Shown: positions 4,806 to 63,078 of the stretch, piece by piece
How the letters are laid out: each line of letters opens with the position of its first letter
Numbering within the stretch: the stretch's first letter is position 1
DNA from: Agelas oroides
Lineage: Eukaryota > Porifera > Demospongiae > Agelasida > Agelasidae
NCBI GenBank assembly: GCA_949130485.1
Contig: OX422184.1
Coordinates: 3,595,204 to 3,659,203, forward strand
Reading direction: 5' to 3'
Length of the DNA: 64,000 nucleotides
Position numbers and translations under genes: made by a program
Notes under the pieces: generated by a model
Database searches by the model: none
What the model was told of the DNA's origin: nothing
The model's input: only the letters and a program-made list of their open reading frames with translations

Positions 4806-5982
4806 TGAGGAGTTTGACTGTTTTGTAGCAAAACTCATATTGGGACTCTTGAGCCAATGCCACACAGAGAACCTGTACAAGCAAATATAATCATGAATTG
4901 AATTAGTTACAGCTGCGTACCATGTAAAAACCTCACACTAGCTGCATGTAGCCTCGTTCCCAGTGCTATCGTCGCTTGCAGTACGAATAAGGCGTTGTTC
5001 GTACTGCAAGCGACGATAGCTGTGGTGGCTAGGGTATTAACAGTTAATTGGTAGGTAGCTAGAACAGTTACAGCACTGGCAACAGTAGGTTACCTTTGAG
5101 CATGGAACAAGACCGACAGCAGCAGCTCTCAACAACAATAATGACATTTACACATCTTAGGCCGGCCCAATCTTGCTGTATATAGATGCGACCCCACAAT
5201 GATATGTACTACATAATTTTAATAGGTCATTATGACTCATGTTGTGTACGCTGGATTCCGATTGTAATTGTGACCACAAAATCTAAACGACATTCACGAA
5301 CTATATGAACTATATCTTCCTATAAAAATTAAGGCCTACATAATCATCATATAGCCAGGTCATGAAGCTTTATCTCCATCTGCACTGTACACTTTCTACA
5401 ACCATTCAGTGTAGGTTATAATTTGAAGTGTATACACTATAATAGCTACCTGTGCCAGTATATGCCGATGCTTGGAATTCTAAGTGCCTTGTGCTTCAGT
5501 TGGAAATAAAATGTTATACGAGATAAAAACAGAGAAATACTTGATCAAGCCAGGAGCCCCATGTTCAATTCTCAGTGATGACGACTCACTTTCATCCAAT
5601 ATGAAACCTCATGAGCAATTGTTCAGAATAACAAACTTTCTACCAGTACTATAGCTCCCTCCTCTCTTCAGCTTTTGATGGCATGACACAAGCACTGGTG
5701 GTGAGAGTATACGTACATGCATGGAAGCAAGTCAGTTCCCATAGGTTTGCAATGGGCTTTGACCTTATTTTGATTGCGCAAGACGATTACTGTCTGGAGG
5801 ATTGAAAATATAGTGGTTTAGAGATTGCCAGTATGTCAATTTGTGGTATACATGTGCATGAGATGCAGGACATATAAAAATGTTTCTTTAAGATACATGT
5901 GTGAAGGAAGTTAAGAAATCATTCAAACAGGTTACTAATGTAGAGTGCCGTGAATGATGTGTTATGCTCTCTACACTTGCAT
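4806..5982. other. Intergenic, satellite to kinesin 3' end
   Basis: AT-rich DNA between the satellite and the kinesin stop codon. It contains one foldback element at about 4949-5032. No coding exon is supported. The plus-strand frame starting near 5954 overlaps the last kinesin exon on the opposite strand and has no supporting structure. Confidence 0.6.
4949..5032. mobile_element. Foldback MITE (TAGCCTCG family)
   Basis: The left end TAGCCTCGTTCCCAG is followed by a 23-bp perfect arm, GCTATCGTCGCTTGCAGTAC..., which pairs with the arm ending CGACGATAGC near 5020 across a short loop. The right terminus is degenerate (GGTGGCTAG). The GTCGCTTGCAGTAC core is shared with copies at 12236, 61787 and 62481. 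Confidence 0.7.
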
Positions 5983-38200: not shown

Positions 38201-38709
38201 CCATTCTTAATCATTATGGTTAGTGTTTTTCTGATTGGTTGCAGTATCTGAATCTAGTTTCTTGGCCCAAACACCCAAGTGGATTCATCTAGCTGCCAAG
38301 GAGACCCCAGTAGAGGAACCCCAATCTGAACTGAGTACGTATAAATATTAATATAACCATATTAGCAACTGTCTATGGAGCAGATCTATGGTCTGTTTGC
38401 TGCATCTTTTGCACACTTATACATACAGCCATTGATGATCTATATGAAGTCACAGACTACCTGCTAAACCTTGGCCAGACTGACACCTACAATTTGGGGC
38501 TAACCCTTGGACTGAACCAGCCTCATATAAAGAAAATGAAAGACTCAGAGACATTCAGAGATGACATGATAGCTGCATGGCTGCAGAAAGAAGACCAAGT
38601 GACCAGGAGGGGAGTGCCAACATGGGAAACCTTAGTGAAGGCCCTGAGAGATCGTAGAGTAAACCAAACTGGACTTGCTGAGACAATTGAAACTGAAAAA
38701 TGTTACTAA
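29252..38709 (+). CDS. Gene A: trypsin-like peptidase fold + helical region + Death domain
   Basis: Nine exons: 29252-30284, 33796-33888, 34793-34951, 35481-35678, 36859-36999, 37137-37304, 37444-37500, 38245-38334, 38429-38709. All eight introns are GT-AG and phase 1, summing to 2220 nt (739 aa). Residues about 60-345 look like a chymotrypsin-fold domain: GRGFIVKL strand, His100 in TSHDTIPG, Asp168 in CDIQLNI, Ser303 in HGSPVV followed by VIGVHVG. The usual GDSGGP is replaced by HGSP, so activity is uncertain. Residues 346-541 are helix-rich, possibly solenoid-like. Exon 6 (542-597) is charged coiled coil (LEALRDIAEEKRQIELELQA). The last exon is a Death domain: LGLTLGLNQPHIKKMK, AAWLQKED, PTWETLVKALRD, GLAETIE. 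No signal peptide or membrane segment. The product is probably a cytosolic adaptor or protease in Death-fold signalling. The first five exons are paralogous to gene B. The first ATG in frame is taken as start; the N-terminal 45 residues have no match in B. Confidence 0.85.
30367..30838. mobile_element. pogo/mariner-like MITE, copy 2 (inverted)
   Basis: Begins TA-CAGTGGAACCCCGCTTAACA and follows the sequence of the 27182-27603 element in reverse complement, including ATGACATTAGATTAGC and the ACAGCGGACACC repeats. The far terminus is lost after GTGTCCGTA. It lies in intron 1 of gene A, starting 82 bp after exon 1. Further fragments of this family lie at 38982 and 55020-55142. Confidence 0.8.
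31243..31875. repeat. 54-bp minisatellite, about 11.7 copies
   Basis: Tandem unit of 54 bp (18 codons) containing CAGACATGAATATTTTCTG and CCAGCCAATATACTGCCCAG. Both strands are open because the unit is a multiple of 3. Variant positions (GATTTT, GAATTT/GAGTTT, TACTACCC; TGCGTCC at 31281 and 31497) show a 4-unit, 216-bp higher-order period. It lies in intron 1 of gene A. Confidence 0.95.
32394..32478. repeat. Near-perfect 85-bp palindrome
   Basis: Two 42-bp arms with one mismatch and a single central base (CCCA-G-TGGG). The left arm starts CCAACATTCAACTGAAACAA and the right arm ends TTGTTTCAGTTGAATGTTGG. It lies in intron 1 of gene A. A second, weaker hairpin follows at 32718-32790 (GGTCACAACAACAT / ATGTTGTTGTGACC). 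Confidence 0.92.
32973..33482. mobile_element. pogo-like MITE, TA target duplication
   Basis: TA at 32971-32972 and 33483-33484 bound a 510-bp element with termini CAGTAGGAAGTCACTTATCC and GTGACTTCCTACTG. Subterminal repeats TTCGGATAACTGAA occur at both ends. No transposase frame is seen. It lies in intron 1 of gene A. Confidence 0.85.
35133..35430. repeat. Long foldback element in gene A intron 3
   Basis: Arms of about 135 bp, 35133-35266 and 35289-35430, pair with moderate divergence. The best-conserved part is GATACTGCAAGACTGTAGTG with AGGTACAC, mirrored at about 35338-35365. It ends 50 bp before exon 4. Confidence 0.85.
37688..38148. mobile_element. Probable GC-rich non-autonomous element
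   Basis: Starts near TAGTGGCGTAGGTGGCGGAA and ends near TTCCGCTGCCTCTGAGTGA. It contains GGGGGAGCATGCCCCCAGG. Fragments with the same terminal motif (GGTTCCGCCGCCTATG) and the same C-run block occur at 44890-44985 and 47570-47700. It lies between exons 7 and 8 of gene A. Confidence 0.5.
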
Positions 38710-42571: not shown

Positions 42572-45500
42572 ATGGCGAGCCGAAGTCATGCCGACTGCAT
42601 CGCTAATTACTGCTGCTTCCTGCAGTCAGTGGACGCTGGGGCCAATGGCAGCGGTTTTATTGTTCAGCTTAAAGATCTTCAGAGTGCCAATCTACTTGCA
42701 CTTAATTGGAAAAAGCGAGGCAAAACCGGAGAGCTTCAAACAGATTACGCCCTCGTCACATCTCACGACACAATTCCTGGCCTGTCCCTTTCCCAACTGA
42801 GATTGAACCGCTGGACAATTTCGTGTCAAGGCATCAAGAACGGTTGCGAGCAGACACTAGGCGACTTCGTTTGTGGAGTTATTTCCTGTTGCGGTCCTGA
42901 AAGTTTGCTTGCAGGACACACTGCAGAGGTCGCTGTGACAGTATTTCGTCAGCACCTCGCTAAGGCAAGTTGCGATATCCAACTCAATATCGCAATTCTC
43001 TTCCTCAACAAATCGTTTGAGAATCTGCTGCAAGGGAGTACAGTCTTCCCACCAGTGATACCAGTCAAAGAATATTTAGACCAAAATGCATATACTCAGA
43101 AACATCAAATGATCATTAGAAACTCGCGCGTTTCCTATTGTGATGGAATCCAAAGTGTCAAAACATGCTCAGTAGCTGAGCAGCAACGCACATTAGAACA
43201 TGGACAAGTACTTACCCAGGAAATCATTGAATTTGAGAGGTTTCAGAAACTTGAGTCAAATACTACAATGGAAATATGCCATGGCTCACCTGTGTATCTC
43301 AACCCAGATACCAATGAACCCTTGATGATTGGGGTGTATGTTGGTAGAACTCGCCAGAAAGGAGAGCAACTTGTGGTCACCTTCCATGGGATCCTAAGGC
43401 TCCTACAAGGTATTGGTTTTTGTATTTTTTATGTGGCCTGCTGCTTTTTGGTCTAAAGTAGGCGAAACGGGAGTAGGTGAACAGGGAATATCCCAAAGGA
43501 TGGAGGGGAGGGGGAGTAAGGAAGCAGCCATGTTTTTATTCCTTGGTTTGCATTGACAATAATACATGGAAGCAGAGGAACAGCAAAGAAGCATATCCAT
43601 CTATCAATCAGCCTATGAGATAATTAATTGTATGTACTACAACAAAATATAAAGGTGGGGAGAAAGGAATTGGGGAAGGGCCATATAATATATATGTTTA
43701 TGTGAGTAGAATATATATACAGTAACATTTTAGAGTGAGTGAGAGACGGTGGTGTCATATGAAAATGAGAACAAACCTAAAATGGGGACGTCAGGTCGCC
43801 ATATTGCCGGGAAAATGGGGACCCAAATCTCCATATTACAGGGACAATAGGGAGCCGGGGTCCCCATTTTCGCAGAAATATGGGGATCCCTTTACGAAAA
43901 TGACTCCCTGTATGGCTGACCGTTTTCCCAAGAGTATATGTCTGTATGGCAGACCATAATCACAGGAATATGGGGATCATTCGTGAAAATGGGGATCCCC
44001 TGTATGGCTGACCATTGCAGATCTTCAATAACCAGCCTCTTACTGACCTGAGCAGCATTGTCAGATTATACATGTGAACAATCATGCATGCTAGTCAGAA
44101 GAGATGTTGTCAGTAGTTCAGTGCTCCTCAAGTAGCCCATAAGCTCCTAGCTACACAAGGACGATTTGATTTATTTCACTTAGAGGGTTGGCGGGTTGTT
44201 ATAGTACATGATGATAAACTGTTCCTCTGTTGTTGTGTTTCTAGGTGGGCTTATACCTGTGCTGTCAGTTCTCCAGTGTTTGGATATTCCTAAAGCCTGG
44301 GCAGGAAGATGGGGCTACCTTGTCACTCCACATATCGGTACGTAAGTGCTAGTCTACTTTAATATACCACTTTTGGTAAGCCCAAGCAGTATCACAGTAG
44401 GAAAAGTCTTACAATATCAATGGTGACATTAAGGGTGCATTGACCATGGCTCAATAAGCACTTGGCAGCAGAAGACATTCGAGATTGGGAGGGCACATGA
44501 CTACAACCATGTAGCAGCTAGGGGGTCTGGGGGCATCCCCCCCAGAAAAAAATTTCAGAATTAGATGCTCTGAGATCGCTTATAAGGCTATTTTTGGACC
44601 AAAACTAGCTACTACTCTGACGAGAACATCTATATAGTTCATACCATGCTTGATAGCTTGGGGCATCAATTGGGTCAAGGTATCAGCCTCGTTCCCAGGG
44701 GTTCCGTTTCTTTCGTTCTCGCTCACCTCGCCTATATTGTCACTGTCTGAATCTAGACTAAAGACAAGACACTCATTCATCTTGGTTCGCTTGCTAGCTA
44801 GTGTGGACTTAGTGAAGCTGACTAGGTCATGTACATAGCCTCTTCACTGATTGGACAACCACCAACACCTGAATAAAGTGCCTGCTGCTGTAGGATTTTG
44901 TGGGGACACTGACCCCCCGCATAAAACTTTGCAGGGGCACATGCCCCCAGTGCCCCCCTGGTTCCGCCGCCTATGCTCGGTACTATGTATGCGAGTGGTT
45001 CAAATTCAAACCTTTTGTCACGGTTCTGTTAAAATTGAGGTTTACAGCAATGGAAGGCCTTACAGGCTATTAAAATGGGTTAGTAGATGATGATGTCAAG
45101 CTGTAAGCAATCAAAAACTAATGTCTGGGAACGAGGCTACTATATGTACTGTGTATTGCTGGCAAATTTTTGTGAGCAATGACATGATCATCATCATCAT
45201 CTACAGTATAGGACACTGTCATCAGCCCCAAAAAAGTAAACTGTTTGGCTGCTTGCTCAATGCTGGGGATTGAACAAACACTAGTAATAAGACCACCATC
45301 CAAAATCCCTTTATCAAATGAAGTTATGGCAAAGGGATCTTCTTCTCACTTGAAAATACGCCCACCTATTTTGCTATAGTACATGCCATTATGTCAATCA
45401 GGAAAGCATTGGAGAAGCAGTACTGTGAATTAAAGAGGTGGAACTAACAAATGTATAGGCAGACACCTTTTGGTGCTACTGTACTGGTGCATGACAAGAG

Positions 45501-48500
45501 AGACTGCATGCAACAGTGCTGAGTCATTGCACATGTAAGATATAGGAGCTGGAATACTTGTGGATGGGTGGGCATATTCTCAAAAACTTGCTCCTCCTCC
45601 TCTTTGAAGATCAGGGCCTAAAATGGGGGGTAACACTGCCCATTTGTGCAGTGATTAAGCTAGAGTGGGCAGTGATAAAATCTAAGTGTTAAAAATTAAT
45701 CGTAAAAATGAGTAAGCATATTCAACCAATATCCCATTATCCTCCACATGAAAGACATTTCAGATAAAAAGAAGATACTGAAACGACAGTCACTCAAATC
45801 TAACAGAAGGTAGTGCTGGGTTCACACGTTTAGAAGCTGTACCGAAAAACGATGTTACATGGTTATTGTATTAAACCTGAAACCTCTGAAATGTAACGAA
45901 AGCGTTTCCATGCCATTGTTTTTACCGCGTTTCCTGTGGGAGCTTCGGCAGTGTTAATATTTTAGGCCCTGTTGAAGATCCACTAAATTTCATTTACCAG
46001 TGGGCATACTTTCAGGAGATTACAATGAGGTTATGTTTATAGTTGTGTACTGTCATTGTAAATCAGCTACTGACAACCTTTTTTTTAATACGTACTGTAC
46101 TGTAGACAAGATGAAAAGGATGGAGTGCAGCTATGTTTGTGAGGTTCTGCACTTCTTACTGAAGAAAAGACATGGGACACCATTCCTCAAGATTCCTGTT
46201 GACCTAGTGAATGTGGATAATGAGGCATCTTTGGACCTACTGTGTGCTCTGTTCAAACACTGTGAGTGTCATGAGAATTACTTATACTGCTGTCTTTGAG
46301 CAGCCTGGCTTGTCTGTTTTGCACAGGCTGTAGCTACTTAAGGTAGCTTACAGTAAACCATGTGGCCAGACCAGAAACTGGTCTAAGCAGACTAAGCTGC
46401 CTTAACTAGATTTATGCATACGTAAACAACTAGCTAGGCTGTGTGCTCATAAGTTTCAGAGACTACCCTGCTATATACCTTCATGGTTTGAGTGTGAAGT
46501 TTATTTCAGGTGTAAAGCACTTTTTAATCGGAATAGCTGCCCTGACCAAATAAATGGCTGCATTGTCATGCATGTGTGTTCACTTGGTGAGGACTGCCTT
46601 TTTTCTACATGCTTCACTGTTTGAAGCTGTCAGTTGGCATCAGCGCTAGTGCTGAGAACCACATATTAAGTTAAAATTGAAGAAGCACCCCGGGCTACTT
46701 TACAACAAACACATGCCTAAAGCTTCAGACATTGCAGCTTACGTACTCAGGCTCACCCCATGAAGGGTTTAGATTAGAAACCTTTACCAGTAAACTTGGA
46801 TCAAAATATCATACTTGTTGTAAACGTTGGTACTACAAAAGTTTAAGCTCAATACGTAGGAAATAGAGTCTAGGGTTTGCCAAGGCAGCACTTCAGTCTT
46901 CCCACCCCAATTCATTTTTAGCCAAAAAATTAGAGTATCAACTGCCTGTGTAGTCGGTCATAGTTATAGTGCTAAAAGATGCTAAAAGATAGTGAAGCAG
47001 GATCAGGGTAGCTTTATTTCCAGGCTACTTCCTATAACTTCTCATTACTTAAAAGGAGAAATAAACCCTGGCTTGGTTGTTGTACTAGGAGCTGAGTGCT
47101 AACCCACAATGTCACAAGGGTGCCAGAACCACGGGGCTAGCGGGGCTATAGCCCCCCTAAAGCTCTGGTCAAGGGGCTAAGCCGCCCTTTCACGAGTGTT
47201 GGGTACGAGAAAAATCCATGTGCCTACATTAGACGTCCAGTTGAAATTTGTGTATTTTTCTATGAATTACCCTTGTCCTGATCTGTCGTTCTAAATGTCG
47301 GCGCTATCTCACTTGAACTGCCTGAGTGACCACGGGGAGTGGTGATGGCTGATACTTTTTGCACATGTGTAATCCAGCCAGCATAGCCCGTAGGTATATA
47401 TTATCTATGCAGCCAGGATAATATATTATATGATATCCCTGATCCAGCCTACGGGGGTACACGTGTATGTGTAGTCGCAATTAACCTCAATGTGGCCTTG
47501 ATTGGTTGCAGAATACTGCACAACAGTTATTACAGGTAAGACTGCATATTCTTGTTTTGGGCCAAAAATGGTCTCAGAAGCAATCTCAGAGCCTCCAATT
47601 GTAAATGTTTTCTGGGGAAGCATACCCCCAAGATCCTGCATGGTTATGCAAGCATTCATCATTTAGGCCCCCTAACCTGAAGTATCTTGCACCACCACTG
47701 CAATGTCATAATATCAATAATTTTTTTTCACTTTTAATATTGCACTCATGTGTAGTTATTTCAACAACAGTAATGTCTTCCAACAGTTGAGAGTGCTGAC
47801 AATGCTGATTTGAATGAAGCAGTCACCAAATTGAACCTCGAGAATGAGATTAATGCCTACATTACACGGCTTTGCAACAATGTGATTAATTTGTTGGAAT
47901 CAGGTAATATCTTGGTAGCAGATAGAACAACTCTTGTTGAGAAGTGCCTCATCTTCTACAATAGGCTACTTGACTTCAAGTATGCAGGTAAGTGGTCATC
48001 CATTTGGCTAGGCATTGTGTAACAGGGCTGTTATGTTTCAAATAATTGCCTAAGTTAGCCCTATAGTGTCATGCATACACATATTGAATGTTGAGCACTT
48101 GATGTTGTAGATATGTGTTCTTGTATCACGCACACGTACAGTAAAGTTCTCACGTGTTATACAATGTAAATGTATAACCTTGTGTATGGCTGTTTCATAT
48201 ACAATGTAATTATACGTTATGCATCTGCAGGAATAACGGAGCAAATTCTTCGCACACCTCAGAATCTTGAACTTCTGAAACACATTCAACAGGGATACAA
48301 ACACTCTGATGTTGTTCAGAAAAATGTCATTGATATCATTTTGAAGAGTAAGTGCATACATACATCATGAGTTAGTCTAGTGCCTATCTTTCTTTAATCA
48401 GTTGGAGGGAAACAAGAAAGCAAGTCTAAGGGAACAGCACAAATTTTAGTACCTGATAATTACTGTGGTTCACACCAAGCTTAATGAGATTCATACTCAG

Positions 48501-51500
48501 CTGTAGCTGTATAGCTTTATTCACCACACTTCCTTTTACTTTCTCTCCGGTAAGTATATGAAAAAAGTTGTATGCATGGGTGGATCAAAGAAGCTGCATT
48601 TAAGGAAGCAAGATCCTGTCTTTCATATGAGCTGTGCGTTAAACAGGGCTTGTATGAAGAGTTCTTTACTGGATGTGAAAAGCACTTTAGCTGGTTAATG
48701 TATTAGTATATATGAACAGCTATTCTAAGGATACAAACAAATCCAACAGGTAATGAGTCACTCCCAATAACAACAATTCTGCATGGTTAGTGGACTTCCC
48801 AGGAGTTTCACATTAAGATCACATGCTCTTTTAGGCTGAAGAGTAACAACACTTGAACCATAAATGCACTACCAACAATAGTCCCTAAAGTATCAACACT
48901 CAAAATGAAGTCATTTGCTTAGTGAAATGTCACACAAATATGTATATAACCATATGGGATTGTAATTAATGTTATAGTAAGTGTGCATCAATATTCTAGT
49001 ATGAAAGCAATGCAGCTCTACATACCAGTAATATACATCACTGTAGACACTAAGCTGTTGTTTTAACTGTTGCTCTGTTACCTGAGTACAGCACAGGCAT
49101 TAATTGTGTAATGTACCATCACTTGTGATCATGCTATCATCTCTCTTAACTCACCCTGTTTTTTTATTGTTTATCTTGTACTAGCATTTGATATTTACGT
49201 TCATTGCTGTTGGTGTTGTCAAAAATGGCATGAGACTTTGTGCCATGCAGTACAAACAACAACTCTTATGTTAAATGTATATCTATTACCTAACTAGGTG
49301 TATTATTCAACTGTGGTAGCAAGGCATGCATTTAGTCTTGCTTTCAGAATGTAGTGTGCAAGCTCAAAAAGTCTTTTTCTTTCATACTGATTAATTTATC
49401 CCTAATAGGGCATCATCTCAGTGGTAAAGAACTCCTTGCACTAAAAGACGACGTATTGCCGGAAGATGTGATTGATGGCTTGCAACAGATTGGGTTGGAT
49501 CTAAAGACTACTGGAGTTGCACAGACAACACTTGAAGAAGTGCAAAGCCTGCTACATTCATTAGAACAACATGAAACTGCATCCAACCTGAGACAACTCC
49601 TCGACTTAGGTAAGCTATTTGACGGTATAGCTATTGTACACTAAAGGAGGAATTGTTGATAAATCCATAATTATACCCTTGGAATTGTAATCACTCATGT
49701 ATACCAATTGTGTAAAGAAGAATAAGTGTATGTCTTGAAATTTGTACATGTTGGTGGACCACAGTTTGGTGATTTTAGGCTCAAGGCCCTATTTAACCCT
49801 TTAACCACCAATGACCCTTTTTGGTAGTGATGGGCGATACCAGTGAATACTAAACCGATACAATACCGACTATTTGATGCAGGTATCGAGAATATCGATA
49901 CGTAATCGATACGATACCGGATGTAGAAATACAGGAAGCCACACCTTAATAATCAATGACAACACTCCTCTTTCGCTTACTCATAGCCGTTCTCAACTTC
50001 TCACTTCTAACCAGTTACAAGGATTAGTGCTAGATCAGTAGACTGTACTCAGTCTCAGCGACGATCACATGCACAGGAAGTGGCCGTGTGCCGGGCGCAT
50101 GTGACATGTCACGTGAAGTATCATTACAAACCGATACTAATTCAATTAGTCTCGTGCCCAGACCCTCCTGAAAAGCAGAAAGAGGGTCTGATGTTCTGAA
50201 TGACTTCTTGTCACATGGGGCGGGGTCGAACGGCATAAAGAATGTAATTATTGCATTCCCCATGCATACTAGGTCTCGTGCTCGATTGCTACGTCATCGC
50301 TAGGCTTGTGGCGATTATGCCAGCATAATTTCTGGAATAATAGGAAGTTTCTGGAAGCAGGCATTATGCAGGAATAAACGGTGGAAAACGGGAGAATAAT
50401 GCCATGTTGCATGGCTTTTCTAAATAACGCCCACTACATGTAACAGGATGGCAGAGTCTAGCAGTGCTGAGACTGGCACTAGTAGTAATTTTAGTGGTGG
50501 CAGTCACAGTACAAATTTCAATGCCTAAACAAGTAGAATCTGATTCTGAGGCGAACTCGGGTGAAGCTGGCCCGAGCTCACAAGTGGTCTCTTTGTTGGA
50601 TCGTCTGAAGTCTCCCACATTATGTGGAATAATGACTTTTTTGAAAGAATAATCGGAATAAATCTAAAGAATTATCAGAACACTTTTTAGGAATTGCGGA
50701 ATAGAATAATGGGCAAAATTTTGAGCACAATTGCCTCAAGCCTAGTCATCGCATATAATTACGCGTTCTGCAATCTGATTCGAGCTCTCAGATCGGGGAG
50801 CTGTGACAAGAAAAGTTGCTCAGAGCACCAGACCTCTCTCTCACACATGCTTGGAGGGTCTGGGCATGAGACTAAGTATCGATACCAGTAGCAGTGATGG
50901 CAGTATTGGAAATATCAATATTTTGGTATCGCCCATCACTACCAGTGCCTGATTGAGTTTTTGGCGTCGTCTGACTTTGGCCGCATGTTGACTATTGAAC
51001 GCATGTTGACTATTGAACGCTCGCTAATGAGTGGGTGTGGCTAATGCCATGAACCACAGAGAATGTAGCTTTGACTCAAGTTTCCAGTGCTAGCTCCAAG
51101 CAGAAGTGGAAATACGGACCAAGGAAGGTATCCGTAGCCTAATAAAGACTTCCAGTAAATAGCCTATGGTAGTTAAAGAGTTAATTCCAGATTTCAAAGT
51201 GGGATTTCTTTTTTGACACTTTGGCTGTGTTATAACTCTTGCCTGTAGTGAATTCATGCTAACTATATGTCGCTTTCATGCAGTGGCGTAGCCAGGTCAC
51301 AGACGACGCCCGGGCACTGCATTTGGTCGGGGGGTGGGCTGGGGGCATGCTCCCCTAGTAAATTTTTGCATCTTAGAGGTAGCTACTCGGATTGTTCTTG
51401 AGACTATTTTTGAAATGCCGTCGGTCTTGAATCAGGAGTAGTTCTGACCCATGACTTCGGCATATGTGCGCGCATGCAGTACAGGTCTTCACCAACGCCA

Positions 51501-54500
51501 AATGTGCGAACAGTGAGGTTAAGAGAGCATAGGAAACTGCGTCATTGCAACATGATAGCTATACTACGAAAGTACGATGTTCAACTGTTTTCCGGACGCT
51601 GACGCCCGGGCCCAGGCCCGGGTGGGCCCGGGTTTGGCTACGCCACTGCTTTCATGAGATAGAAGCCACTTACCATCTTGCTCTGCATCATCAATTGAAT
51701 TGAGTGGGTATGATAATGATCATGTGTACTAAATTTGTTTCTTTCCATTGCACAAGTTTTAAACATAGTATGTACTTAGCTTTTGAAAGGGAAAACACCA
51801 ATGGCTTTATTTTCTTATCCTCCTCCCTGATGGATATAATAATCTGTTGTCTTGCTTCAGCACATACAGTGACATACTCTGAGTTCCAGTCTCACTAGTT
51901 GTTGCATTTTCTTTTTATCACAGCCCTGGAAAACCAGTTGCATTATGAAGCTTATCAACAGGCATTACAGGAAGGCAAAAAAATACTACTGAAGTATCTG
52001 AAACTCCTCTTTTTCGGTCCTCCGCGAACAGGAAAGACATCCATGAGACGTCGCTTAGTTAGAGAGATTGAAAACCTTGCAAATGAACCTGTTCAAGCAA
52101 GTACTGGTACAGCAGAACATTATGATGTCATCGTTAAGCTAATCAAGGACAAGATTACCACTTCAACATCTGTCATCACAAAGTCCGAGTGGTCAAGTGT
52201 AAAAACATTGTTTGGTCAACAAAAAAGCACCGATGAGACAGACTTGGATGATGAATTACGGCTTCTTTTCCGGTTTACTTATAAAACTGATCCTACGACT
52301 GGAGAGAAGTCTCCTGTTTCTAAACCAGTTAAGGAAGAAGCCGAGAAAAAAAGCCAGGATGAAGGACAAAGTCCAGCTGTATTGCAAACAGATAATGTTA
52401 CAGGTCCCACTGTATCACCCAAAACTATAGATCCTGACACCCCTAAACTTCAGGAAGTCTCCCCAGAGTATGAACTTAGTGCTGAACAAACGGAAGAAAT
52501 TGAAAAGGCATTTGAAGCTTTTAATAAGATATTGCATACAGCTGGAGAGGAAAAGCTTCAGGTTTTGCTGGAAGGAACTATTCTTATGAACATGGTTGAC
52601 ACAGGTGGTCATCCAGCATTCCTTGAGATGCTTCCAGCCCTGACAATGGGCCCAGCACTCTATCTCATCTTCTTCAGGCTCAACCAAGAGCTGAAAAAGA
52701 CATACCAGATACAGTATGTCAGTAAAGACAGTGAAAACATCCCATTGGGTGATTCTTCGTACACTGTTGAAGAAGTTATCTTTCAAGCCCTATCAAGCAT
52801 AGCATGCTTTGGCTGCACTGCACCCAAGAAAGACATGCCCAATCCATCTCATGCTGCTATGCTCATAGGCACACACAAGGATCTGCTTAAAAGTGATCCA
52901 GAAACTAAAATTGAAGGTAAGGATAAAGCACTTAAAGACAGTCTTCAAGAGATTTTGGAAACTGATATTTTTGAATCGGACAAGGAGTTGCTTCAGCATG
53001 CTCGTGATGATCAGCTCATGTTTGCAATTGATAACATGACCGGAGATGAAGGAGAGCTGGCAGAAGTTCGTGAACGGCTTAGAGATATAATAAACCAAGA
53101 GTTTGATAACTTTGCTATTCCTGCTTCTTGGCTTATGTTCGGCATTTTCCTTCGTAAGATGGGAAAGCGTACCTTGAGTTTGTCGCAATGTCATGAGATA
53201 GGGGCAAGACTTAAAATGCGAGACACGGATGAAGCGCTATGGTTCCTACACCACCATGTTGGAACCCTGATGCACTTTCCTCATGTAGAAGAGATTAAAG
53301 ATGTTGTGATCTGTGATCCTCAAGTTGTCTTTGACAGTGTTACAGATCTGATTTTGAACAGCTTCAACCTCAAGCGAGTAAGCAAGTCAGTTTGTGACAA
53401 GTTCAAAGAGACTGGCCAGTTCAGAATAAAGGACATTCAGAACATTGCACAAAAATGCAGTGACAACCTCCCCCTGCATAAACTTGTCAAGCTCCTTGAA
53501 TACCTTAACATCATAGCACCTATACGCCCTTCATTTTGTGTTCACTCGCTAAGTACCAGCCTTCCACTCAGCCCTGAACCAAGCCCTCAATCAGATGCAA
53601 ACCAAGGGGAGAAGCTAGTGTATTTCATGCCTGCTGTACTCAAACATGCCACAGAAAAAGAGCTACACATGGAGCAAAGCCCCACAGATCCAGTGCCTCT
53701 CATGATTCACTTCAAGTGTGGCTTTGTACCTATTGGAGTGTTCTGTGCAATGATAGCTAGCCTTGTTGCCCAAAAGGACACTCTTGGGTGAATTCTTCAG
53801 GAACCACACAGGCATCACTCCAAACATATTTTGTGCAAGAACAGAATCACATTTCGAGTCCTTGATGCTTATGATATCACCCTGATTTCAAAACCTAAGT
53901 GGTATGAAATTCACATTGCTCGCATCTCAACTACAGACAGGGCATTGCAAGAGGTCTGCCAACATGTTCTAGAAACAGTTTGTGACACTCTTGACCAAGT
54001 GATCTTCAAGATGAAGTACAAAAAGTATCAGATTTCTTCCCATACTGAGGAAACATGCTATGAGCTGGGTTTCAAATGCCCAGAACATCCAAATGGTGAT
54101 CACGTGGTCATTAACAAACTAAAGAAGGGTGTAAGTACTCCATCACAATCTGCAAAGTTTCTCTGGTTAAACTACCTTGAGAAAAAGTCAACAATGTTTT
54201 GTCTCGAAGAGGAGAGAGAGATTGTTTTTGCAACTTTTTCTCAACAGAGCCTTCTCTGGTTTACAGAAGTAGGTTAATTCAGCTCGTTAGCAATAAATTG
54301 CCTATGCATAATATGTCTTTTTCTATATTTGTAGAGTATTGTGTCATCTGACTCAATACTTGGCAAGGACACTTCCAACAGGATACAAAGTACTGGTATG
54401 ATGAAAATGCACAAATTGACTTTAGTTTGCACTACAACCAGTTTTGCCTGATTTGTGATATTTCTGCAGAATTTTCCCCACCCGTCACCTCACCTGCTAA

Positions 54501-57500
54501 CAGCTTGCAGCCAACTGGTCGGTTTGTTTATCCCATGGGACTTCAGTATTTATCTCGATAGCAGCTGTACAGTGTGAATATTATATTCATGTGCTATTTT
54601 TCTTTATTTCTATACATACAGGTTTGGAACTAGATGTGAAGAATGTTTTGAATGTCCTTCGTGAGGCTGGGTTTGCTGATGCAGGTTGGGCAGAACTTGG
54701 CCTCCAGTTGATAAATCACTTTGAATTAGTAACAGTCAAAGCAGATCATAGTCAAGCTAACCTCTGCATGATAGAGACAATATCCCAGTGGCTAAAGAGC
54801 GACCCTAAAGCATCCTGGGAGAAGCTTGCTGAAGCTATACCTAAAGTGGGAGGATATGGAGAAGCCATTGCAGCCAGTGTTCGGGAAAAGGCAGGAATAG
54901 CCCACACAGGTATGTCTAACAACCCTATAATTACTATGGATTAGAAGACTCTGTCTGCTATTTGGCTAACTACCTTCTAAAGGGACATATACTTAAAGTC
55001 ATAATGCCAATGCACATATTACAGTGGAACTTCTCTATTACAGACCCAACAATTTGTCCTGATTGGCCTTATTTTAGGGGCATAATTGATATAAAGTTGA
55101 GACTCTATCTGGTGTCCTGATTAACCAAGGTGTCCTTATATCATGGTGATCTTTATTCCTAATGTCAACTTTTGTTGACATCAGACTGCTCAGTGCACAG
55201 AAAAGATTCTTCACATACCAGGAATTTCTGCATGTATTTTTGTCATATAAAATGCATGCATGAAAGCCTGTATTGGACACTTCATTCGCATTGAGCTGTA
55301 TCCCTGGAAATAGTAGTCATCTTCATGCGTAAATAATACTTATTAAAATTCCACAAACATTGAGTTGGCCCCCCTAACTTGTTACAATCCCATACAGAAA
55401 TAACAAGCTTGTACAAGGATGCTACAACTTTGTCAACAAGGTTGTGACATGGATGTAACAGGGTTGTGGACATGCTTGTCACAACCATGTCACAACCATG
55501 TCACAACCTTGCCAGTACTTTGTATATGAAACTGTAAACAGACCTAGACAACCATGTAATAAGTATGTACAACCTTGTCACAATGTTGTTACAAGGCTGC
55601 CGAATTTCGTTCTGACAAGGTTGTACAACTTAATTTCAAATTCAAAAATCCAATACTCTGATTGATCCAATGATCAACAATTATCATGGCGTACGGTAGT
55701 ACGCCATATGTAGGGATGACCCCGAAAAAAAATGGCGGCCACATTCAAAGTGCACAAATGACACGCTCGAAATGTCCGCGTTAGATAAGTCAACGGCCTC
55801 CATGAGCCATATCAGACATTATCGAGTGCTTCCATGGGCAACAGGATCGTTAAATTTGCTGGAAAGCATCGCTAAGTATACCTGACATCAAGTCTCTAAA
55901 AAAGGCAAATCGTCTATCTTCTGACTTCTTCTTCTTTTGCTCACCACGATAGCACGACAACGGCTGAAGCTATTACAACGATTCAAACGCGAAAGATCAG
56001 CATAAATTACTGGGTATTGTACCCACCACTCATCGTTCTCAAAGAAAGAAGTCGAATTAATCGGCGATTCTCAGGTAACCCCACGCTTATGCTTGCTGCT
56101 ATACGCCATTTTGTTAGAATAGAATATTCATAGCGATTACGTCAACAGAAGTTCAACAGCTACAGCACGTGAAGTTGGCATGCAGCTGCGGTTATTCTAC
56201 TTCCGTAGAGAACTTGACGATCGATTGATTCCCAAACGATTGCATATGTTGCTACTTTCATACAGCAGTTGACGTACTTGTGCTGGATTTGACAAGGAAC
56301 GCAGTATGCGTAACGTCCACAAGAAACGGGCGCGGGATAAGCAGAACTATCTGCGAAACAAAGAAAGCAAAAGGCAAGCGTCCCGTAACAAGTACTGGAA
56401 GAACCCGGAAAAACAAAGGGCATCTTCCCGGGCGTACTCTCTTACTAGTTATTGGAAGAACCCTGAAAAGAAAAGGGCATCTTCCCATACCCGTTATTGG
56501 GAGGACCCCAAGACCAAGAGGGCGTCCTCCCATACCCGTTATTGGGAGGACCCCGAGACCACAGTGCCTTAGAACAACCACTCACACACACATGCACATA
56601 CCCAATTAGACAACAGTTACACCCATGATTCCATTGTCAAGTGGATAAGTGCAAACAGCTAACATCCTCCAGAAATCCATCAACATCAACAATAAACTAC
56701 ATAACAAGTCATTTCACTTGGGGTGTGGTTACACAACAACAAAAAAACAAAAACAGAAACAAGTCACAAAAAAGTTTGCCAAACGCAAACAAGCACATGT
56801 AGGGATGAAATCCTCAAAAACCAACCAAACAAGACGGGAACGACACCACAATACTTTTACACCATCCCTACATCTTGTGCCATTTTGCCACCTGTACACA
56901 ACACAAAACCCTCTACATTTGTACTTATTAGCCCACACCAACCACAAACAAACATAGTACTTCACTCCATTCAACTATCTCACAAAATAACCCATCCTTC
57001 ACAAAGCATTACAAAATTACCACTACTCACTTCACAGCCACCTGTATACAAGACAACCCATATCTATCATGCTAAACAGGCATAAAACTTAACAACATAA
57101 TGCACATTCCAACATACCACACACACTCACCACTCCTCACTCACTCCACACCTTCTACACACAACTTGGACCATACCTGCTACACTCAGTAGCAACCACC
57201 AACAACACAACATACTCACTATGCACAACACACCCACGCCACACCCTTCCATCTACAAGACAACCCTCTTCTACACACAACTAAAAAACAAATACAAACA
57301 CACAGTTTTGGCAAAATGGCACAAGATGTAGGGATGGTGTAAAAGTATTGTGGTATCGTTCCCGTCTTGTTTGGTTGGTTTTTGAGGATTTCATCCCTAC
57401 ATGTGCTTGTTTGCGTTTGGCAAACTTTTTTGTGACTTTAGTGTTACAACACGTACACATAATATGCATACTGACTCAAGTTCAGAAAGTCTAAGACAAC

Positions 57501-60500
57501 AACACTAGCTGTGTTCATTAGGTTAGAATTCCATGAAGCAGCTATAATTAAGTGGTTATAACATTCAGTATTCTTCATCACACTTGCTGGTAAGCTGGTT
57601 TCGTTTCAGCTTGACCCTTAGATGGCCAACTTCTTTGACAACTCTGAAAGAAAGTATTTGGCACAACATGTCACCATAATGGACACTGTCCTGAAGCATG
57701 CTTGCGTATATGTAATGAGTAACGAGACTCAAACTGCATCTTTGTTGCTGTACCTTGAGTTAACTCATTGCACGCGGGAGGCCACTTTAGTGGCCCAATA
57801 ATTGCCAGTTAGCCCACTCGAAGGCCACTAAAGTGGCCCGTAAAGTAGAACTCACCGTTTACCATGAAGCTAAGAAGCTTAGCGAAACTCGGGGGTAGGC
57901 CCCTTTATATTTAGTAGTAATGAGGCTAGACCACACCTTTTGGCTGACATCATCACTCTGGGAAGGCAGGAAGACACGGTGCTAGTTCAGGTGATTGCGA
58001 GTTTAGCCGAGGTAGTCAGATATGAAGCTTTTACTCAAACATAGCAACCACTTAGATAAACTAGTCCAGCCTAGTTACGCGCTATGTACACAATTCAAGC
58101 CACTGCCCAGGGCTTGCTAGCACGCTTGTCGACTTTGACCTTCAGACCTGACAACACTGATTATGGGTAATTTCCGCTTTGCTAAACTGAACGTGTAAAT
58201 TATTTGCGTGTGCAATGAGTTAAGATAGCTAGCTAGATGTTTAGCTGATACAGAGTAGCCTCGTTTCCAGGCTAATTGCACATGTCATAACAAGAGAAAA
58301 GGAACAGCCAGCTGTGAGATAAGATCACATGATGAGTAGTTCCCAAAATTGGTTCGAGCCAGTAGAGGCATGTGCCAAACTTACTTTGATTAGCCTAAGA
58401 TGGTAACAGAGTGACCCACTGTATACATACAGCCTATATAATGATACTGCACAGGCTCATTGCTATGTCTGAATATAATAATCCACTTACATAGCCTATA
58501 TAGGTCACGCACAATGTAGCTGGTACGACAGCTTGCAGCATATGCAATAAAAAAAATCACAATGGTAGGCAGCTGTACCTGAAACAGCAAAGATGAAATC
58601 TTGACTTGCTCCCAGAAGCATACCCTCTTCACTAGTAGGGCAGCACTGGGCGTGTAGGCTCAAGCCATTATGAGCAAAGTATGGTGGACACTCTGTATTC
58701 TTCCAGCCACTGCACGCATATCATTTTCAAACCCGTCTTTACGCAGCTGCTTTAGTACACGGACTTTGCATGCGCATTGCGCAATTCTATTTGAAGCACA
58801 CTCTAAGTCGGTCTGTTCTACGTGGCTTGGTTCCTATCAAAATTTCACGCGTTTGTGGGACCGTGCGTTGTTTGATAAAGGCTTTTTGAAGAAACCATAA
58901 AACGTGGCTGTCAGTCTTTGTAGCCCTTGAGTAGTATGAAGCCACTGATTGACCAGGTAAACCACGTTTACTCAGCAACACAGTGCTGCAGGTGATAAAA
59001 AACCCCAGGGAAGCTAGAGTAAACAGGGAAGCTGGGTACAAGACTACCAGCTCGCTGCATGCAGCTTGATTCTCTCCCACTCCCTGAATGTGGCAAGACG
59101 GTCCCCGTGTTCTGAGCATCACACAGGGCAGGCCCTTGTCATAAAAATGTTATAGTTGTAGGGAAGAGCATAACAGATAGCCACATGAATGAGCAACTCA
59201 TATACTACGTGCATGCAACATGCACGTAACATACAACAGCATGTAGCACACAGTGTGCATGTTGCATGTCGATACTGCCCAGGAAACATGTTGCCAAAAA
59301 TGCAACATGCATGTCACAACAACAACAGCAAAAAAAACAAAAACAGGTTTTGCAGCAGTTTATCTCAAACTTGTGTAGGGTCTTGTGACAGCTTGTCACA
59401 ACCTTGTACAAAGATACCAGTTTGTGACAAGGTTTTACCAGATTGTCATAACCTGGAAACAAGGTTGTTGATAGCATGTTTCTTGTATACAAGCTTGTTA
59501 CAACCATGTCACATGCTTGTGCAACCTTGTCATTTTTGTATGGGATGTGTTTCAGGAGCTGCAGAAAATTCAAGAATTTCACATTTTCAGCCATGTTTTG
59601 GTAGGTTATGCATATTTATTTTGTGCAATTCATGTAATTTCCAGTAATATGTACTCTGGCTCTCAGCCCTTTAATTAATGCCTTTAGCATGTTCTTTTTT
59701 AAGTACAAGCATGAGTGCAAATTGGTTGTTTGATTCACTTACAAAGAATGCCATGCATGGTTGGCTTCACAGGCAACCAGATTTGTTACATACACAATGT
59801 GTATTAGTTGTATACTGGGCATAGTTAATTTGGTTGCATGAATGAAGAGAGTATTCAGCAAACTCTCATGAAATTACTGTGTTCACTGCAGCTGGCTTGG
59901 AAAAGGTAGAGGTAAAGCACCAGAATGTACAGACAGAATCTGTGGAGATCAAACATCAACAAATACAGACAGAAACTATAATAGCACAGGAGAAAGGTAT
60001 GTTATCAAGACTGAATCAGTGACTGTTTTGGTTTACATAACACATTCAGTGGTATGCATGAAAAGTTCTATTCACAACCAGAGGTGTAGCATACATTGAG
60101 CTGTTGTTGAGAGTGGCGAATGTTTGAGCTGCATCCGACGATACTTGCGCTGAATCTGGCCTGCTATCCCTGTTGGTGAGTAACCCTGGCTCAAAGAGAC
60201 GGTCTTCCTCCGCTTGGATGGTGCTTCCTAAGCACTACTGATATCGTTGTCTTGCTTTATGAAACTATTTATACATAGACTATGGAAGTTGCATGCCAGC
60301 TTGCCGCCTTTGGCAGCTTGAAGCACCCTTTCTCTAACTTGTGACCACTTACATTGAGAAAAGGACAGCCCCCATACAAAGTACATTTTAATTATTGTAA
60401 TCTTCATTGTGCTTTGGCTGAAGATGCACTCGATGTTCATCGCCTCCAAACATATTTTATATGGTGCAGCCAAATGGCTGAAGATGTATTCAATGTTCAT

Positions 60501-63078
60501 CCCCTCCATACATGTTTTGTATGGTGCAGCCAAATAAGCCAAGGGCGGGTGTTACAGCTAACCATTGTAAATACCTTAATGTTTCCTTCAATCCAGCATC
60601 TTATATGAGATCACACATGTCATTGCCACCTTTGTGGATCCTATTTCTGCTACTGGCTGTTGTTAGTGGAATTGCTGGACTTTGGTGGTTTGGTAAGTTT
60701 TCAGCTTATTGTGTCCCTACATTAATATGAAAAACAGTTCTCTAGATCTGTTATACCAACTTTAATCCTAAAACTTTGCCGATGTTAAACTTAGATGGAT
60801 AAACTTGACATCTGCTATACGTTTATCAATATCAATTCTACCCATGAGGTGTTTTCCACCTGGAGTGTTACTCCATCTATATAAATATAAGTCAGCATTC
60901 CTTATACAGGCTATCCCAGTATTGCTGTAGCTATTTTGACTGGGGTTGAGAACTCTCTCACCAATTTATTAGCATCAATGTGAAGAACAAACTAAAACTT
61001 TTTGCCACATATCTCACTAAAGCAAACTTCCAAGGCTTTAGGAATCTTGGAACTTGGACATTCACTTACCGTAAATTGAGAAAAGTTCACTGTTGAAACA
61101 TTTTCGTTGACAACGAAAATTAACCTCACGAAAATTTTGATGTGCACACAAAGACAGCCGTTTCGAATGCTCTGCTCTTGACTTTGTACACTGCTAGTCC
61201 TCATTCGCGATGTCAATTCGAAGCTACTTCAAGCCGAAGGGTGGTCTTCTGGATTCCGAAGGATCATTTTCAACATGTCTGCCAACGCAAGCGATCGCCC
61301 TGCAAACAAGGCAATGGAGAAGGCTATGAAGGTAAAAACGGGGGAGGCCTGGAAATGAGGCTAAGGCTTGGGCATATTATGCTCTAATTTTTCTCAATTA
61401 TGCTATGCTTCAAGACAACTATTTTATGCTTTTTCAACTGTGTCATTATCCTTAAATTATGCCCACTCAAAAGTTCATGATCATGCATCCATGCAAGCAT
61501 GATTGTTGTTTATCAATGGTTGTTTATTGTAGTCATAAATTGATGAAGACTGTAAATTGAGAGAAGACTCTCTTTGCATGTCTCAGAATATGCTTAGATC
61601 TACTCATGAATAAAGACAACTTCATAACTGTTCGTGAATATTGTTAACAACTCGTGAATAATGATAAGTTGCTGTTGCACAAGGCTCTAGTGTGCTTACG
61701 TTCGCAATTATGCTCGAATTACTAGTGCTGATTATGCTCAATTTTATGCCTAATATGCGCAAGCCTACCTGGCAACCATCTTCCTGTAGCCTCATTCCCA
61801 GGCTCTCCCCGTGCGAATGATAGCCCTCTTCCGCTTTTCCGTACTGCAAGTGACGGAAAGCTGGGCGGGGCCTGGGAACGAGGCTAATCTTCCTGTACTG
61901 GCAGTTTTGTGTGGGTTAGCTGGTCATTGCTAGTACTTGTACATTGCATCAAGTTTCACACCCAGTCACATGGAATAAGATGTCGTACCTGATGACTTTT
62001 TTGAGCCGGGACATATCTAGCACACAATTTTTGTGCATTATGCCTAATCTGCACATCAACTGGTCAACTGTGCCAATATGTGTTTATTGGTACTGTCTGT
62101 TGTGCCAGAATCTCATTTATTAGTGCCTTTATTTTAAGTGTCTTATCAGTGATGCCACATTACATTTGCCACAGGGCCATAGTCTAATCCATCACTGATG
62201 CACCACTCATCAACAACCTCTCCTCCAACCGGTAGGTATCTTGCATAACCTGTGTCCTGGAATGTACATACAAAAACTTAGAAACTCTTGAAGCACTTTA
62301 TGCACTGCACAGTAATGAGAAACCCTAAGAGCAATGAAAGAGTGTTAAACAACTTTAAGTACTCGGTGAGTAAACACCATTCCCTTCTTCTAGCCCCAAC
62401 TGCAAGTTCCTAAAAGGGTAATTTTATTTTCACTGGTTGAAGGACCCGTGATGAGTGTTTTCTACAATGTACTGTTCTCTTAGCCTCGTTCCCAGGCCCC
62501 ACCCAGCTTTCCGTCGCTTGCAGTATGCGCGCGGGGAGAGCCTGGGAACGAGGCTACAACTTTTTAGCCCTTAATTTTAACATTCCTGACCCAATTGTTT
62601 GTTGATGCACCATGCTTGAGCAGCACAGACCTAGCTATGTGGCTCGTCAGTGTTGCAAACACTCTTTGGAAATCTTTGCAGCATACAGATACCACTGCAC
62701 TGGTGTAAAACCATATTTTGCAGGCCTTACGTTTGTTTTTTGTTTGTTGTTGTAGTTGATGTTTTGTCTTTGTTTGTTTGTTTGTTTGTTTTACAGACCA
62801 TCACATAGCAAGTAAGCAGGATCTCTACACGATGCTTGCAAACATTGGAAACTGGCACTGGGCAGTCTCTCTGTACATATTTGGAGGTGCCAGAAGCAGC
62901 ACTTAGTAATCTAGTACATGAGGACCTGGAGAACAATGCTAGAAAAGGGAAGTGTTTAGCTGCATACATTGATCAGGGAAAAGCTTGCTGGGAGAAAGTC
63001 ATTGAGGTTGTTGCTGGTTATCCTTTTTATAAGAAGAAACTTGCTACACAGATTGCTCAGAAGTTTGGTGTTAATTGA
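42572..63078 (+). CDS. Gene B: peptidase fold + ROC/COR-like GTPase + Death + TM + Death
   Basis: Fourteen exons: 42572-43409, 44245-44337, 46106-46261, 47787-47987, 48231-48347, 49409-49609, 51924-54268, 54335-54395, 54470-54517, 54622-54909, 59556-59600, 59892-59996, 60597-60692, 62797-63078. All introns are GT-AG and phase 1 except one (54268, phase 0). Length is about 1624 aa. Residues 25-280 are the gene A peptidase fold (His65, Asp135, Ser239 in CHGSPV). A helical region follows (exons 2-6). Exon 7 is a GTPase: P-loop GPPRTGKTS 567-575, DTGGH 761-765, GTHKD with Thr852, then a COR-like region (VVICDPQVVFDSVTDLI). Exon 10 holds a Death-like domain (VLREAGFADAGWAELGLQLI, ASWEKLAEAI). Exon 13 is a membrane helix about 1509-1531 (LWILFLLLAVVSGIAGLWWF). 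Exon 14 is a second Death-like domain (YLEVPEAALSNLV, CWEKVIEVVAG). Two lesions: an in-frame TGA at 53789-53791 and one extra base near 62860-62863. ATTAAA near 63100 could be its poly(A) signal. The role is inferred as membrane-linked cell-death or immune signalling. Confidence 0.8.
49825..50941. mobile_element. TAGTGATGGGCGATACC element with nested foldback insert
   Basis: Outer terminal inverted repeats of 17 bp, TAGTGATGGGCGATACC and its complement, bound 1117 bp. Inside, CGATACCG/TATCGATA repeats recur near both ends. A second element, 50147-50874, with TAGTCTCGTGCCCAGACC and GGGTCTGGGCATGAGACTA ends, is inserted within it. It lies in intron 6 of gene B. The termini suggest a hAT-type origin, but no 8-bp duplication is seen. 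Confidence 0.7.
51281..51648. mobile_element. hAT-like MITE with 8-bp TSD
   Basis: Termini CAGTGGCGTAGCCA and TGGCTACGCCACTG. A perfect 8-bp duplication CTTTCATG lies at 51273-51280 and 51649-51656. The inner part is GC-rich with GCCCGGGC repeats. It lies in intron 6 of gene B, about 270 bp before the GTPase exon. Confidence 0.9.
56306..56572 (+). CDS. Small repetitive basic protein in the TIR element (hypothetical)
   Basis: Single open frame of 88 aa starting ATG, rich in Lys and Arg. It consists of about five imperfect repeats of 14-19 residues built on YWKNPEKKRASS, with variants YLRNKESKRQAS and YWEDPKTKRASS. Tandem NPEKKRA-type repeats of this kind occur in many uncharacterised sponge and cnidarian proteins, some attached to transposon-encoded proteins (recollection, not checked). 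It lies in an intron of gene B, on the same strand. It could be a cargo frame, a fragment of a longer transposon protein, or not translated. Confidence 0.4.
   Translation: MRNVHKKRARDKQNYLRNKESKRQASRNKYWKNPEKQRASSRAYSLTSYWKNPEKKRASSHTRYWEDPKTKRASSHTRYWEDPETTVP
56746..57442. repeat. Inverted repeat with A/C-skewed spacer
   Basis: About 140-bp arms, 56746-56890 and 57306-57442, are near-identical in inverse orientation; AAAGTTTGCCAAACGCAAAC pairs with GTTTGCGTTTGGCAAACTTT. The 400-bp spacer and left flank are extremely A/C-rich on the plus strand with very little G. It lies within the 4.16-kb element. The open frames on each arm are mirror images and probably not genes. Confidence 0.88.
57760..58223. 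mobile_element. piggyBac-like MITE (TTAA ends)
   Basis: TTAA at 57760-57763 and 58220-58223 flank termini CTCATTGCAC(GCG) and GTGCAATGAG. Two copies of a GGCCACTTTAGTGGCC-type hairpin lie in inverse orientation near 57781 and 57824. No coding frame. It lies in the 4.16-kb intronic element. Confidence 0.75.
60421..60540. repeat. 60-bp tandem duplication
   Basis: Two adjacent 60-bp units, 60421-60480 and 60481-60540, differ at about nine positions and share ATGGTGCAGCCAAAT. They end 56 bp before the transmembrane exon of gene B. Confidence 0.9.
61364..61768. mobile_element. AT-rich TIR element (TTATGC-rich)
   Basis: The left end GGCTTGGGCATATTATGC is mirrored at the right by GCCTAATATGCGCAAGCC. 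ATTATGC-type motifs recur through the element. It lies in the last intron of gene B. Confidence 0.55.
61787..61886. mobile_element. Foldback MITE (TAGCCTCG family), 9-bp TSD
   Basis: A 100-bp element with termini TAGCCTCATTCCCAGGC and GCCTGGGAACGAGGCTA, flanked by a perfect 9-bp duplication ATCTTCCTG at 61778-61786 and 61887-61895. It lies in the last intron of gene B. Confidence 0.93.
62481..62556. mobile_element. Foldback MITE (TAGCCTCG family)
   Basis: A 76-bp element, TAGCCTCGTTCCCAGGCC to GCCTGGGAACGAGGCTA, with the family core GTCGCTTGCAGTATGC. The flanks show no clear duplication. It lies in the last intron of gene B, 240 bp before the final exon. Confidence 0.85.

What the first reader, a model, noticed from the sequence alone, without database searches (positions are those of the whole stretch)
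42572..63078. Gene B: protease-like fold, GTPase/COR, Death, membrane helix and Death in one protein
The frame-consistent exon chain joins a trypsin-like domain, a helical region, a P-loop GTPase with DTGGH and THKD motifs plus a COR-like segment, a Death-like domain, a 23-residue membrane helix and a second Death-like domain. I know of ROCO-type proteins with Death domains. A peptidase module at the N-terminus together with a membrane anchor between two Death-type domains is not an architecture I recognise. It suggests a GTP-gated, membrane-tethered cell-death or immune sensor whose effector could be the protease module.
Basis: partly seen in the sequence, partly recalled or inferred. Interest (0 to 1): 0.82.

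Follow-up and report, generated by a model that had tools for sequence, protein, structure and literature searches.

The report
Broken exon-shuffled ROCO Death-domain gene
This is one copy of a large family of switch-like (ROCO) genes with cell-death adaptor domains in one animal genome; its unusual front part looks at most like a dead protease, and this copy carries two disabling changes, so it is more likely a recently broken relative than a working new immune sensor.

Summary
The exon chain is real. I placed 11 exons (42572-63078), all junctions phase 1: a novel N-terminal module, Roc-COR, Death 1, a hydrophobic helix, Death 2. Gene C, about 180 kb away, repeats exons 1-6, Roc-COR and Death 1 in the same order, so N-terminus and GTPase belong to one gene. 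Roc-COR is solid; the Death folds have indirect support.

Three points fail. (1) The chain is not open: an in-frame TGA (53789-53791) stands where 16 of 16 compared paralogues read TGG, and Death 2 carries a 7-base frameshifting insertion. (2) The 'protease' has no Pfam, NCBIfam or PDB match and no usable model; by motif it would be dead: Ser position His/His/Tyr, Asp position Asn, in its three copies. (3) Helix and Death 2 are joined only by phase and adjacency; one helix would put the Death domains on opposite sides of a membrane.

Best reading: a recently disabled member of an exon-shuffled ROCO-Death family. The genome has 132 COR-A places; the largest published count I found is 47 genes.

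The parts
42572..43409 (+). exon 1: protease-like (unproven) N-terminal module; motif Ser position is His, Asp position Asn
   Evidence: open frame, copies in genes A and C only; motif comparison; no Pfam/NCBIfam/PDB match
44245..44337 (+). exon 2
   Evidence: phase 1 both ends; copies in genes A and C
46106..46261 (+). exon 3 (helical by eye)
47787..47987 (+). exon 4 (helical by eye)
   Evidence: three genomic matches at E<=0.01: A, B, C
48231..48347 (+). exon 5
   Evidence: also upstream of the next paralogue's Roc-COR at 97.5% identity (L046:5843-5962)
49409..49609 (+). exon 6, also found just upstream of Roc-COR in gene C, L028 and L021
51924..54272 (+). exon 7: Roc-COR GTPase; its weak donor (GTTAAT) makes the 3' end the least certain boundary
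53789..53791 (+). in-frame TGA inside COR-B where paralogues have TGG
   Evidence: 16 of 16 compared paralogues TGG; two fragmentary ones (L031, L032) not compared
54622..54909 (+). exon 8: Death-like domain 1
   Evidence: 12 of 86 homologous places coincide with Pfam Death places; no direct Pfam hit in 11 members
59892..59996 (+). exon 9: short linker, homologue after Death 1 in the next paralogue
60597..60692 (+). exon 10: predicted membrane helix
   Evidence: best 19-residue mean hydropathy 2.23; one other genomic match, C2:903083, E 0.0019; linkage by phase only
62797..63078 (+). exon 11: Death-like domain 2, frameshifted by about 7 extra bases near 62854-62860
   Evidence: intact homologues L049 and L050 read through; modelled fold of L049
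29252..38709 (+). gene A: tandem relative with exons 1-5, coiled coil and Death-like domain (both by eye), no Roc-COR found; exons open
   Evidence: no Pfam hit for its Death-like domain

Best explanation
Gene B is a recently disabled member (pseudogene or defective allele) of a greatly expanded, exon-shuffled family of ROCO-Death genes. In intact relatives, GTP-dependent switching of Roc-COR would expose or cluster Death-fold domains that recruit other Death proteins. The N-terminal exon 1-5 module, found only in genes A, B and C, would act as a binding, sensing or decoy module and not as an active protease. Shown here: the exon chain, the conserved order in gene C, Roc-COR, the two lesions, the missing catalytic residues on the motif reading. 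Inferred: the PA-clan fold, the signalling role, the linkage of exons 10-11, and that inactivation is recent.
For: Phase-1 chain; colinear gene C and gene A; COR-A in 19 of 19 and Roc in 18 of 19 members; TGA against TGG in 16 of 16 compared paralogues; 7-base insertion in Death 2 against L049, with L050 also open; decay elsewhere in the family: a 2-base insertion in gene C exon 1 and a TGA in L025. Constraint before the loss: dN/dS 0.32-0.47 exon 1, 0.31-0.42 Roc-COR B pairs, 0.25-0.32 Death 2 B pairs. 132 COR-A places.
Against: No reads or transcripts: both lesions could be assembly errors, one haplotype, or be bypassed by splicing. Branch counts are mixed: against L015, B has no excess of amino-acid changes (21 against 31), against gene C it has more (37 against 21), which would fit a longer relaxation; COR-B beyond the stop has dN/dS 0.49-0.64 in B pairs against 0.30-0.56 in pairs without B, and Death 1 is near neutral in B pairs (0.54-1.15). 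A 1157-residue product with exons 1-6, Roc and COR-A could still work.
Confidence: 0.6

Rival explanations
1. The gene is intact and functional; the TGA and the 7-base insertion are assembly errors or belong to one defective haplotype, and the product is a working ROCO-Death protein.
For: Low dN/dS over exon 1, Roc-COR and Death 2 and no excess of amino-acid changes on B against L015; all splice sites and phases preserved.
Against: Two independent lesions of different kinds in one gene; other copies are broken too; more amino-acid changes on B than on gene C.
Confidence: 0.22
2. The locus is two or three genes: for instance exons 1-8 (module, Roc-COR, Death 1) and a separate short gene with the helix and Death 2.
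For: Intron 8 is 5 kb; exons 10-11 were not found after Death 1 in the fetched parts of gene C or in the next paralogue, which goes on to ZU5; the helix exon has one other genomic match.
Against: All junctions are phase 1, including 8-9, 9-10 and 10-11; an exon 9 homologue follows Death 1 in the next paralogue. A split between exons 6 and 7 is unlikely: gene C repeats the order and exon 6 precedes Roc-COR in four genes.
Confidence: 0.15
3. One reading: a working GTP-gated, membrane-tethered sensor whose protease domain is the effector.
For: His of the motif kept in A, B and C; Roc-COR motifs intact; bacterial and brown-algal ROCO proteins with trypsin-type or peptidase domains exist (PMC8195603 section 15; PMC11378527 section 10).
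Against: Ser position His, His, Tyr and Asp position Asn; no fold support; frame broken; helix linkage unproven.
Confidence: 0.03

Closest known systems
DAPK1 and other animal ROCO proteins (LRRK1/2, MFHAS1)
   Same: Central Roc-COR; a Death domain follows it in DAPK1 (recalled)
   Different: No kinase, ankyrin or LRR match in the gene B exons scanned; has a private exon 1-5 module, a second Death-like domain and a possible membrane helix
Bacterial AP-GTPase-COR conflict proteins (PMC8195603, section 15 read)
   Same: GTPase-COR core joined to changing partner domains, among them trypsin and caspase domains
   Different: There the variable effectors are C-terminal and LRRs N-terminal; here the protease-like module is N-terminal and lacks the catalytic residues by motif
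Brown-algal and other SAR ROCOs with a C-terminal peptidase domain (IPR009003; PMC11378527, section 10 and passages read)
   Same: ROCO joined to a peptidase domain (IPR009003 is the trypsin-type PA fold, recalled); large exon-shuffled gene sets proposed as immune receptors
   Different: Peptidase at the C-terminus, LRRs at the N-terminus; in this sponge-like gene N-terminal, with Death domains
FLIP(L), the pseudo-caspase (PMC7586951, outline and abstract seen)
   Same: A dead protease-type domain tied to a Death-superfamily module acts as regulator
   Different: Caspase fold, not trypsin-like; no GTPase
Sponge NLRs of Dysidea avara (PMC12909245, passages seen)
   Same: Expanded immune NTPase genes, some with N-terminal Death domains, some reported with transmembrane domains
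   Different: NACHT+LRR, not Roc-COR

Membership tests
ROCO (Roc-COR) family | Roc GTPase with G1, G3 and G4 motifs | tested here: met
   GPPRTGKT, DTGGH, THKD; Roc in 18 of 19 members, the exception being B itself at E 0.021
ROCO (Roc-COR) family | COR domain directly after Roc in the same exon | tested here: met
   COR-A in 19 of 19 members; B E 9.6e-7, under the curated cut-off
ROCO (Roc-COR) family | Uninterrupted Roc-COR reading frame in this copy | tested here: not met
   TGA at 53789-53791 in COR-B
DAPK (kinase-ankyrin-ROCO-Death) | N-terminal kinase and ankyrin repeats | tested here: not met
   No such match in the exons scanned; the next downstream paralogue does have both nearby
Death-domain superfamily (Death 1) | Homology to Pfam Death | tested here: met
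   Indirect: 12 of 86 homologous places are also PF00531 places; no direct Pfam or PDB-sequence hit
Death-domain superfamily (Death 2) | Six-helix Death fold | tested here: met
   On homologue L049: six helices, pLDDT 74.7, top Foldseek hits FADD/Fas Death domains, probability 1.00, TM 0.66, but E 0.16; hhalign to Death 1 inconclusive
Trypsin-like (PA clan) proteases | His-Asp-Ser triad | tested here: not met
   On a by-eye motif alignment: His kept, Asn for Asp, His/His/Tyr for Ser in A, B, C
Trypsin-like (PA clan) proteases | Double beta-barrel fold | tested here: inconclusive
   pLDDT 30.7; no Pfam, NCBIfam or PDB sequence match
Membrane-tethered receptor | Membrane helix in the same transcript | not testable with these tools
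   Hydrophobic exon in phase; no RNA data

The most novel reading that the evidence does not exclude
A new animal ROCO subfamily in which a degenerate trypsin-like N-terminal module is fused to Roc-COR-Death and serves as a decoy or bait (for example for invader proteases or their inhibitors), with gene A (same module, Death-like domain, no GTPase) as its partner; B and C are decaying copies of a birth-and-death immune gene set, and working copies are gene A here and intact orthologues elsewhere.
Probability: 0.2. Interest if true: 0.6.

Novelty: new variant of a known kind. Interest (0 to 1): 0.4.

Why it matters
With 132 COR-A places in one genome, against four human ROCO genes and 47 in the richest brown alga (PMC11378527), ROCO proteins may fill an NLR-like role there. 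A dead protease-type module on a Roc-COR-Death protein would be a new decoy design, but that is not shown.

Tried and rejected
Active protease: rejected on the motif reading. Recoded TGA: rejected, because the TGA stands for Trp in B but for Arg in L025. An exon junction at the TGA: rejected, because the frame runs straight across that place in 16 of 16 compared paralogues. Relatives of exon 1 or Roc-COR on bacterial plasmids: no match. Trypsin-like proteins of the same genome as a bridge (10 matches to PF00089, 3 to PF13365, none at A, B or C): two of them compared by hhalign gave probability 0.1. Structure of exon 1: mean pLDDT 30.7, not used. Death 2 against Death 1 by hhalign: probability 17.8, inconclusive. 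PDB profile searches with both Death alignments: no Death-domain hit. Pfam on gene A's Death-like domain: none. Other species: no animal collection was at hand, so the architecture elsewhere is untested. Selection: Death 1 gives dN/dS 0.54-1.15 in B pairs, so it lends no support from constraint.

Full report
Setting. The window lies at G000:C2:3595204-3659203 in an unnamed 259-Mb genome of 141 contigs.

Gene model. From the sequence I placed 11 exons: 42572-43409, 44245-44337, 46106-46261, 47787-47987, 48231-48347, 49409-49609, 51924-54272, 54622-54909, 59892-59996, 60597-60692, 62797-63078. All introns are GT/AG and every junction is phase 1; every exon after the first is a multiple of three, so modules can be added, swapped or skipped. 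The exon 7 donor (GTTAAT) is weak, so that end is the least certain.

One gene or several. tblastn against fetched loci found gene C on the minus strand of the same contig (exon 1 at C2:3464326-3465221; Roc-COR at C2:3456417-3458312), about 180 kb from gene B. It holds exons 1-6, Roc-COR and Death 1 in the same order. Gene A in the window (29252-38709) holds exons 1-5, then a coiled coil and a Death-like domain (both by eye; no Pfam hit for the latter) and no Roc-COR that I found. Exon 6 also lies just upstream of Roc-COR in L028 and L021. Exon 1 has five matches at three places and exon 4 three matches: A, B and C. So exons 1-5 are a private module, and it is truly joined to Roc-COR in B and C. 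For exons 9-11 the link is weaker: an exon 9 homologue follows Death 1 in the next gene downstream, but that gene goes on to ZU5; the helix exon has one other match in the genome; Death 2 has 15 matches including itself, elsewhere.

Lesions. Exon 7 stops at TGA 53789-53791. In an alignment with 16 close paralogues (L015-L030; the fragmentary L031 and L032 were left out) 16 of 16 have TGG there. Death 2 needs two frames: L049 and L050 read straight through, and a DNA alignment with L049 shows 7 extra bases in the window. As assembled the protein would end at residue 1157 (computed from the coordinates). Decay is not unique to B: gene C has 2 extra bases in exon 1; L025, a near copy of L024, has a TGA for Arg; 2 of the 80 Roc-COR matches contain a stop.

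Selection. dN/dS is 0.32-0.47 for exon 1 (three pairs), 0.31-0.42 for Roc-COR (eight B pairs) and 0.25-0.32 for the later part of Death 2 (two B pairs). Against this, COR-B beyond the stop gives 0.49-0.64 in B pairs and 0.30-0.56 in pairs without B, and Death 1 gives 0.54-1.15 in B pairs. Branch counts of amino-acid changes are 21 on B against 31 on L015, but 37 on B against 21 on gene C. So B was constrained for most of its history, with some sign of relaxation. Recent inactivation, a defective allele, or assembly error fit; without reads I cannot separate them. I favour inactivation because two lesions of different kinds occur.

Domains. Roc-COR: COR-A in 19 of 19 and Roc in 18 of 19 aligned members; the exception is B itself (Roc E 0.021). 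The best PDB profile match is 4wnr, E 3.2e-7, listed as a leucine-rich-repeat protein (a Roco protein, recalled), then LRRK2. Death 1: no direct Pfam hit in 11 members, but 12 of its 86 places in the genome, itself included, are also Pfam Death places (compared by eye). Death 2: the intact homologue L049 models as six helices (pLDDT 74.7, pTM 0.59); its nearest solved folds are FADD and Fas Death domains (probability 1.00, TM 0.66, E 0.16; none of 44 matches has E<=0.001); sequence searches gave no Death hit. Helix: best 19-residue mean hydropathy 2.23. With one pass and no other membrane segment recognised, Death 1 and Death 2 would lie on opposite sides, which speaks against both acting in one complex.

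The 'protease'. Exon 1 has no match in Pfam even at E 10, one irrelevant weak hit in NCBIfam (E 0.037), and none of meaning among PDB sequences. The model from four alignment rows is unusable. What remains is a motif reading by eye: GSGFIV, then LVTSHDTI, then LNIAILFL, then HGSPVY with MIGV after it. On that reading the His is kept in A, B and C, the Asp position is Asn in all three, and the Ser position is His, His and Tyr. If it is a PA-clan fold it is a pseudoprotease; if not, the label falls. Either way an active protease effector is not supported.

Family setting. The genome has 132 COR-A places at E<=0.001 (144 candidates, all scored), 98 of them over the curated cut-off by my count of the table; gene B's own place is under it. 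It has at least 150 Pfam Death places, the number scored out of 870 candidates. Some may be haplotype duplicates or pseudogenes, and places are not proven genes. The DNA around the nearest downstream paralogue carries an ankyrin exon, two similar kinase exons, Roc-COR, Death 1 and ZU5; that these form one gene is not shown. [quoted passage not shown]). My literature searches (listings of the best hits only, open-licence PMC papers) showed no paper on a sponge ROCO expansion or on this architecture; that is weak evidence of absence.

Mechanism. Most likely for intact relatives: the N-terminal module senses or binds, Roc-COR switches with GTP, and the Death domains nucleate assembly with other Death proteins. 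This is drawn from DAPK1 and other ROCO proteins (recalled) and not shown here. FLIP(L) (abstract) is a precedent for a dead protease-type domain tied to Death-superfamily domains.

Verdict. The architecture is largely real; an open reading frame is refuted for this assembly; an active protease is not supported; the membrane link is unproven. New variant of a known kind, of moderate interest, more for the family than for this copy.

Noticed in passing
whole genome G000: 132 COR-A places in one animal genome, 98 over the curated cut-off by my count, many in arrays on C1, C3 and C20: a very large ROCO expansion.
   Followed up: partly
whole genome G000: At least 150 Pfam Death places; only 150 of 870 candidates were scored.
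   Followed up: no
L046:861-1889, 4002-5117, 6363-7340; L047:5929-6588: Around the nearest downstream Roc-COR paralogue lie an ankyrin exon, two similar kinase exons and a ZU5 exon: DAPK-like parts in another order.
   Followed up: partly
29252-38709: Gene A: same N-terminal exons 1-5 with coiled coil and Death-like domain but no Roc-COR; its exons are open.
   Followed up: partly
L045:6115-6528 (-): Gene C has an extra weak Death match (E 0.041) between Roc-COR and Death 1.
   Followed up: partly
L024 and L025: Two Roc-COR exons 84 kb apart with near-identical translations, one with a TGA for Arg: another stop in the family.
   Followed up: partly
1-4807: Satellite array with a 192-base unit, about 21 copies at 91% plus a diverged tail.
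   Followed up: no
31243-31875: Minisatellite with a 54-base unit, 11.7 copies at 97%, inside gene A's first intron.
   Followed up: no
27647-28429: Open frame of 260 aa that looks like a short-chain dehydrogenase by eye; not scanned.
   Followed up: no
C8:8999959-9262116: A cluster of Death 1 homologues on contig C8.
   Followed up: no
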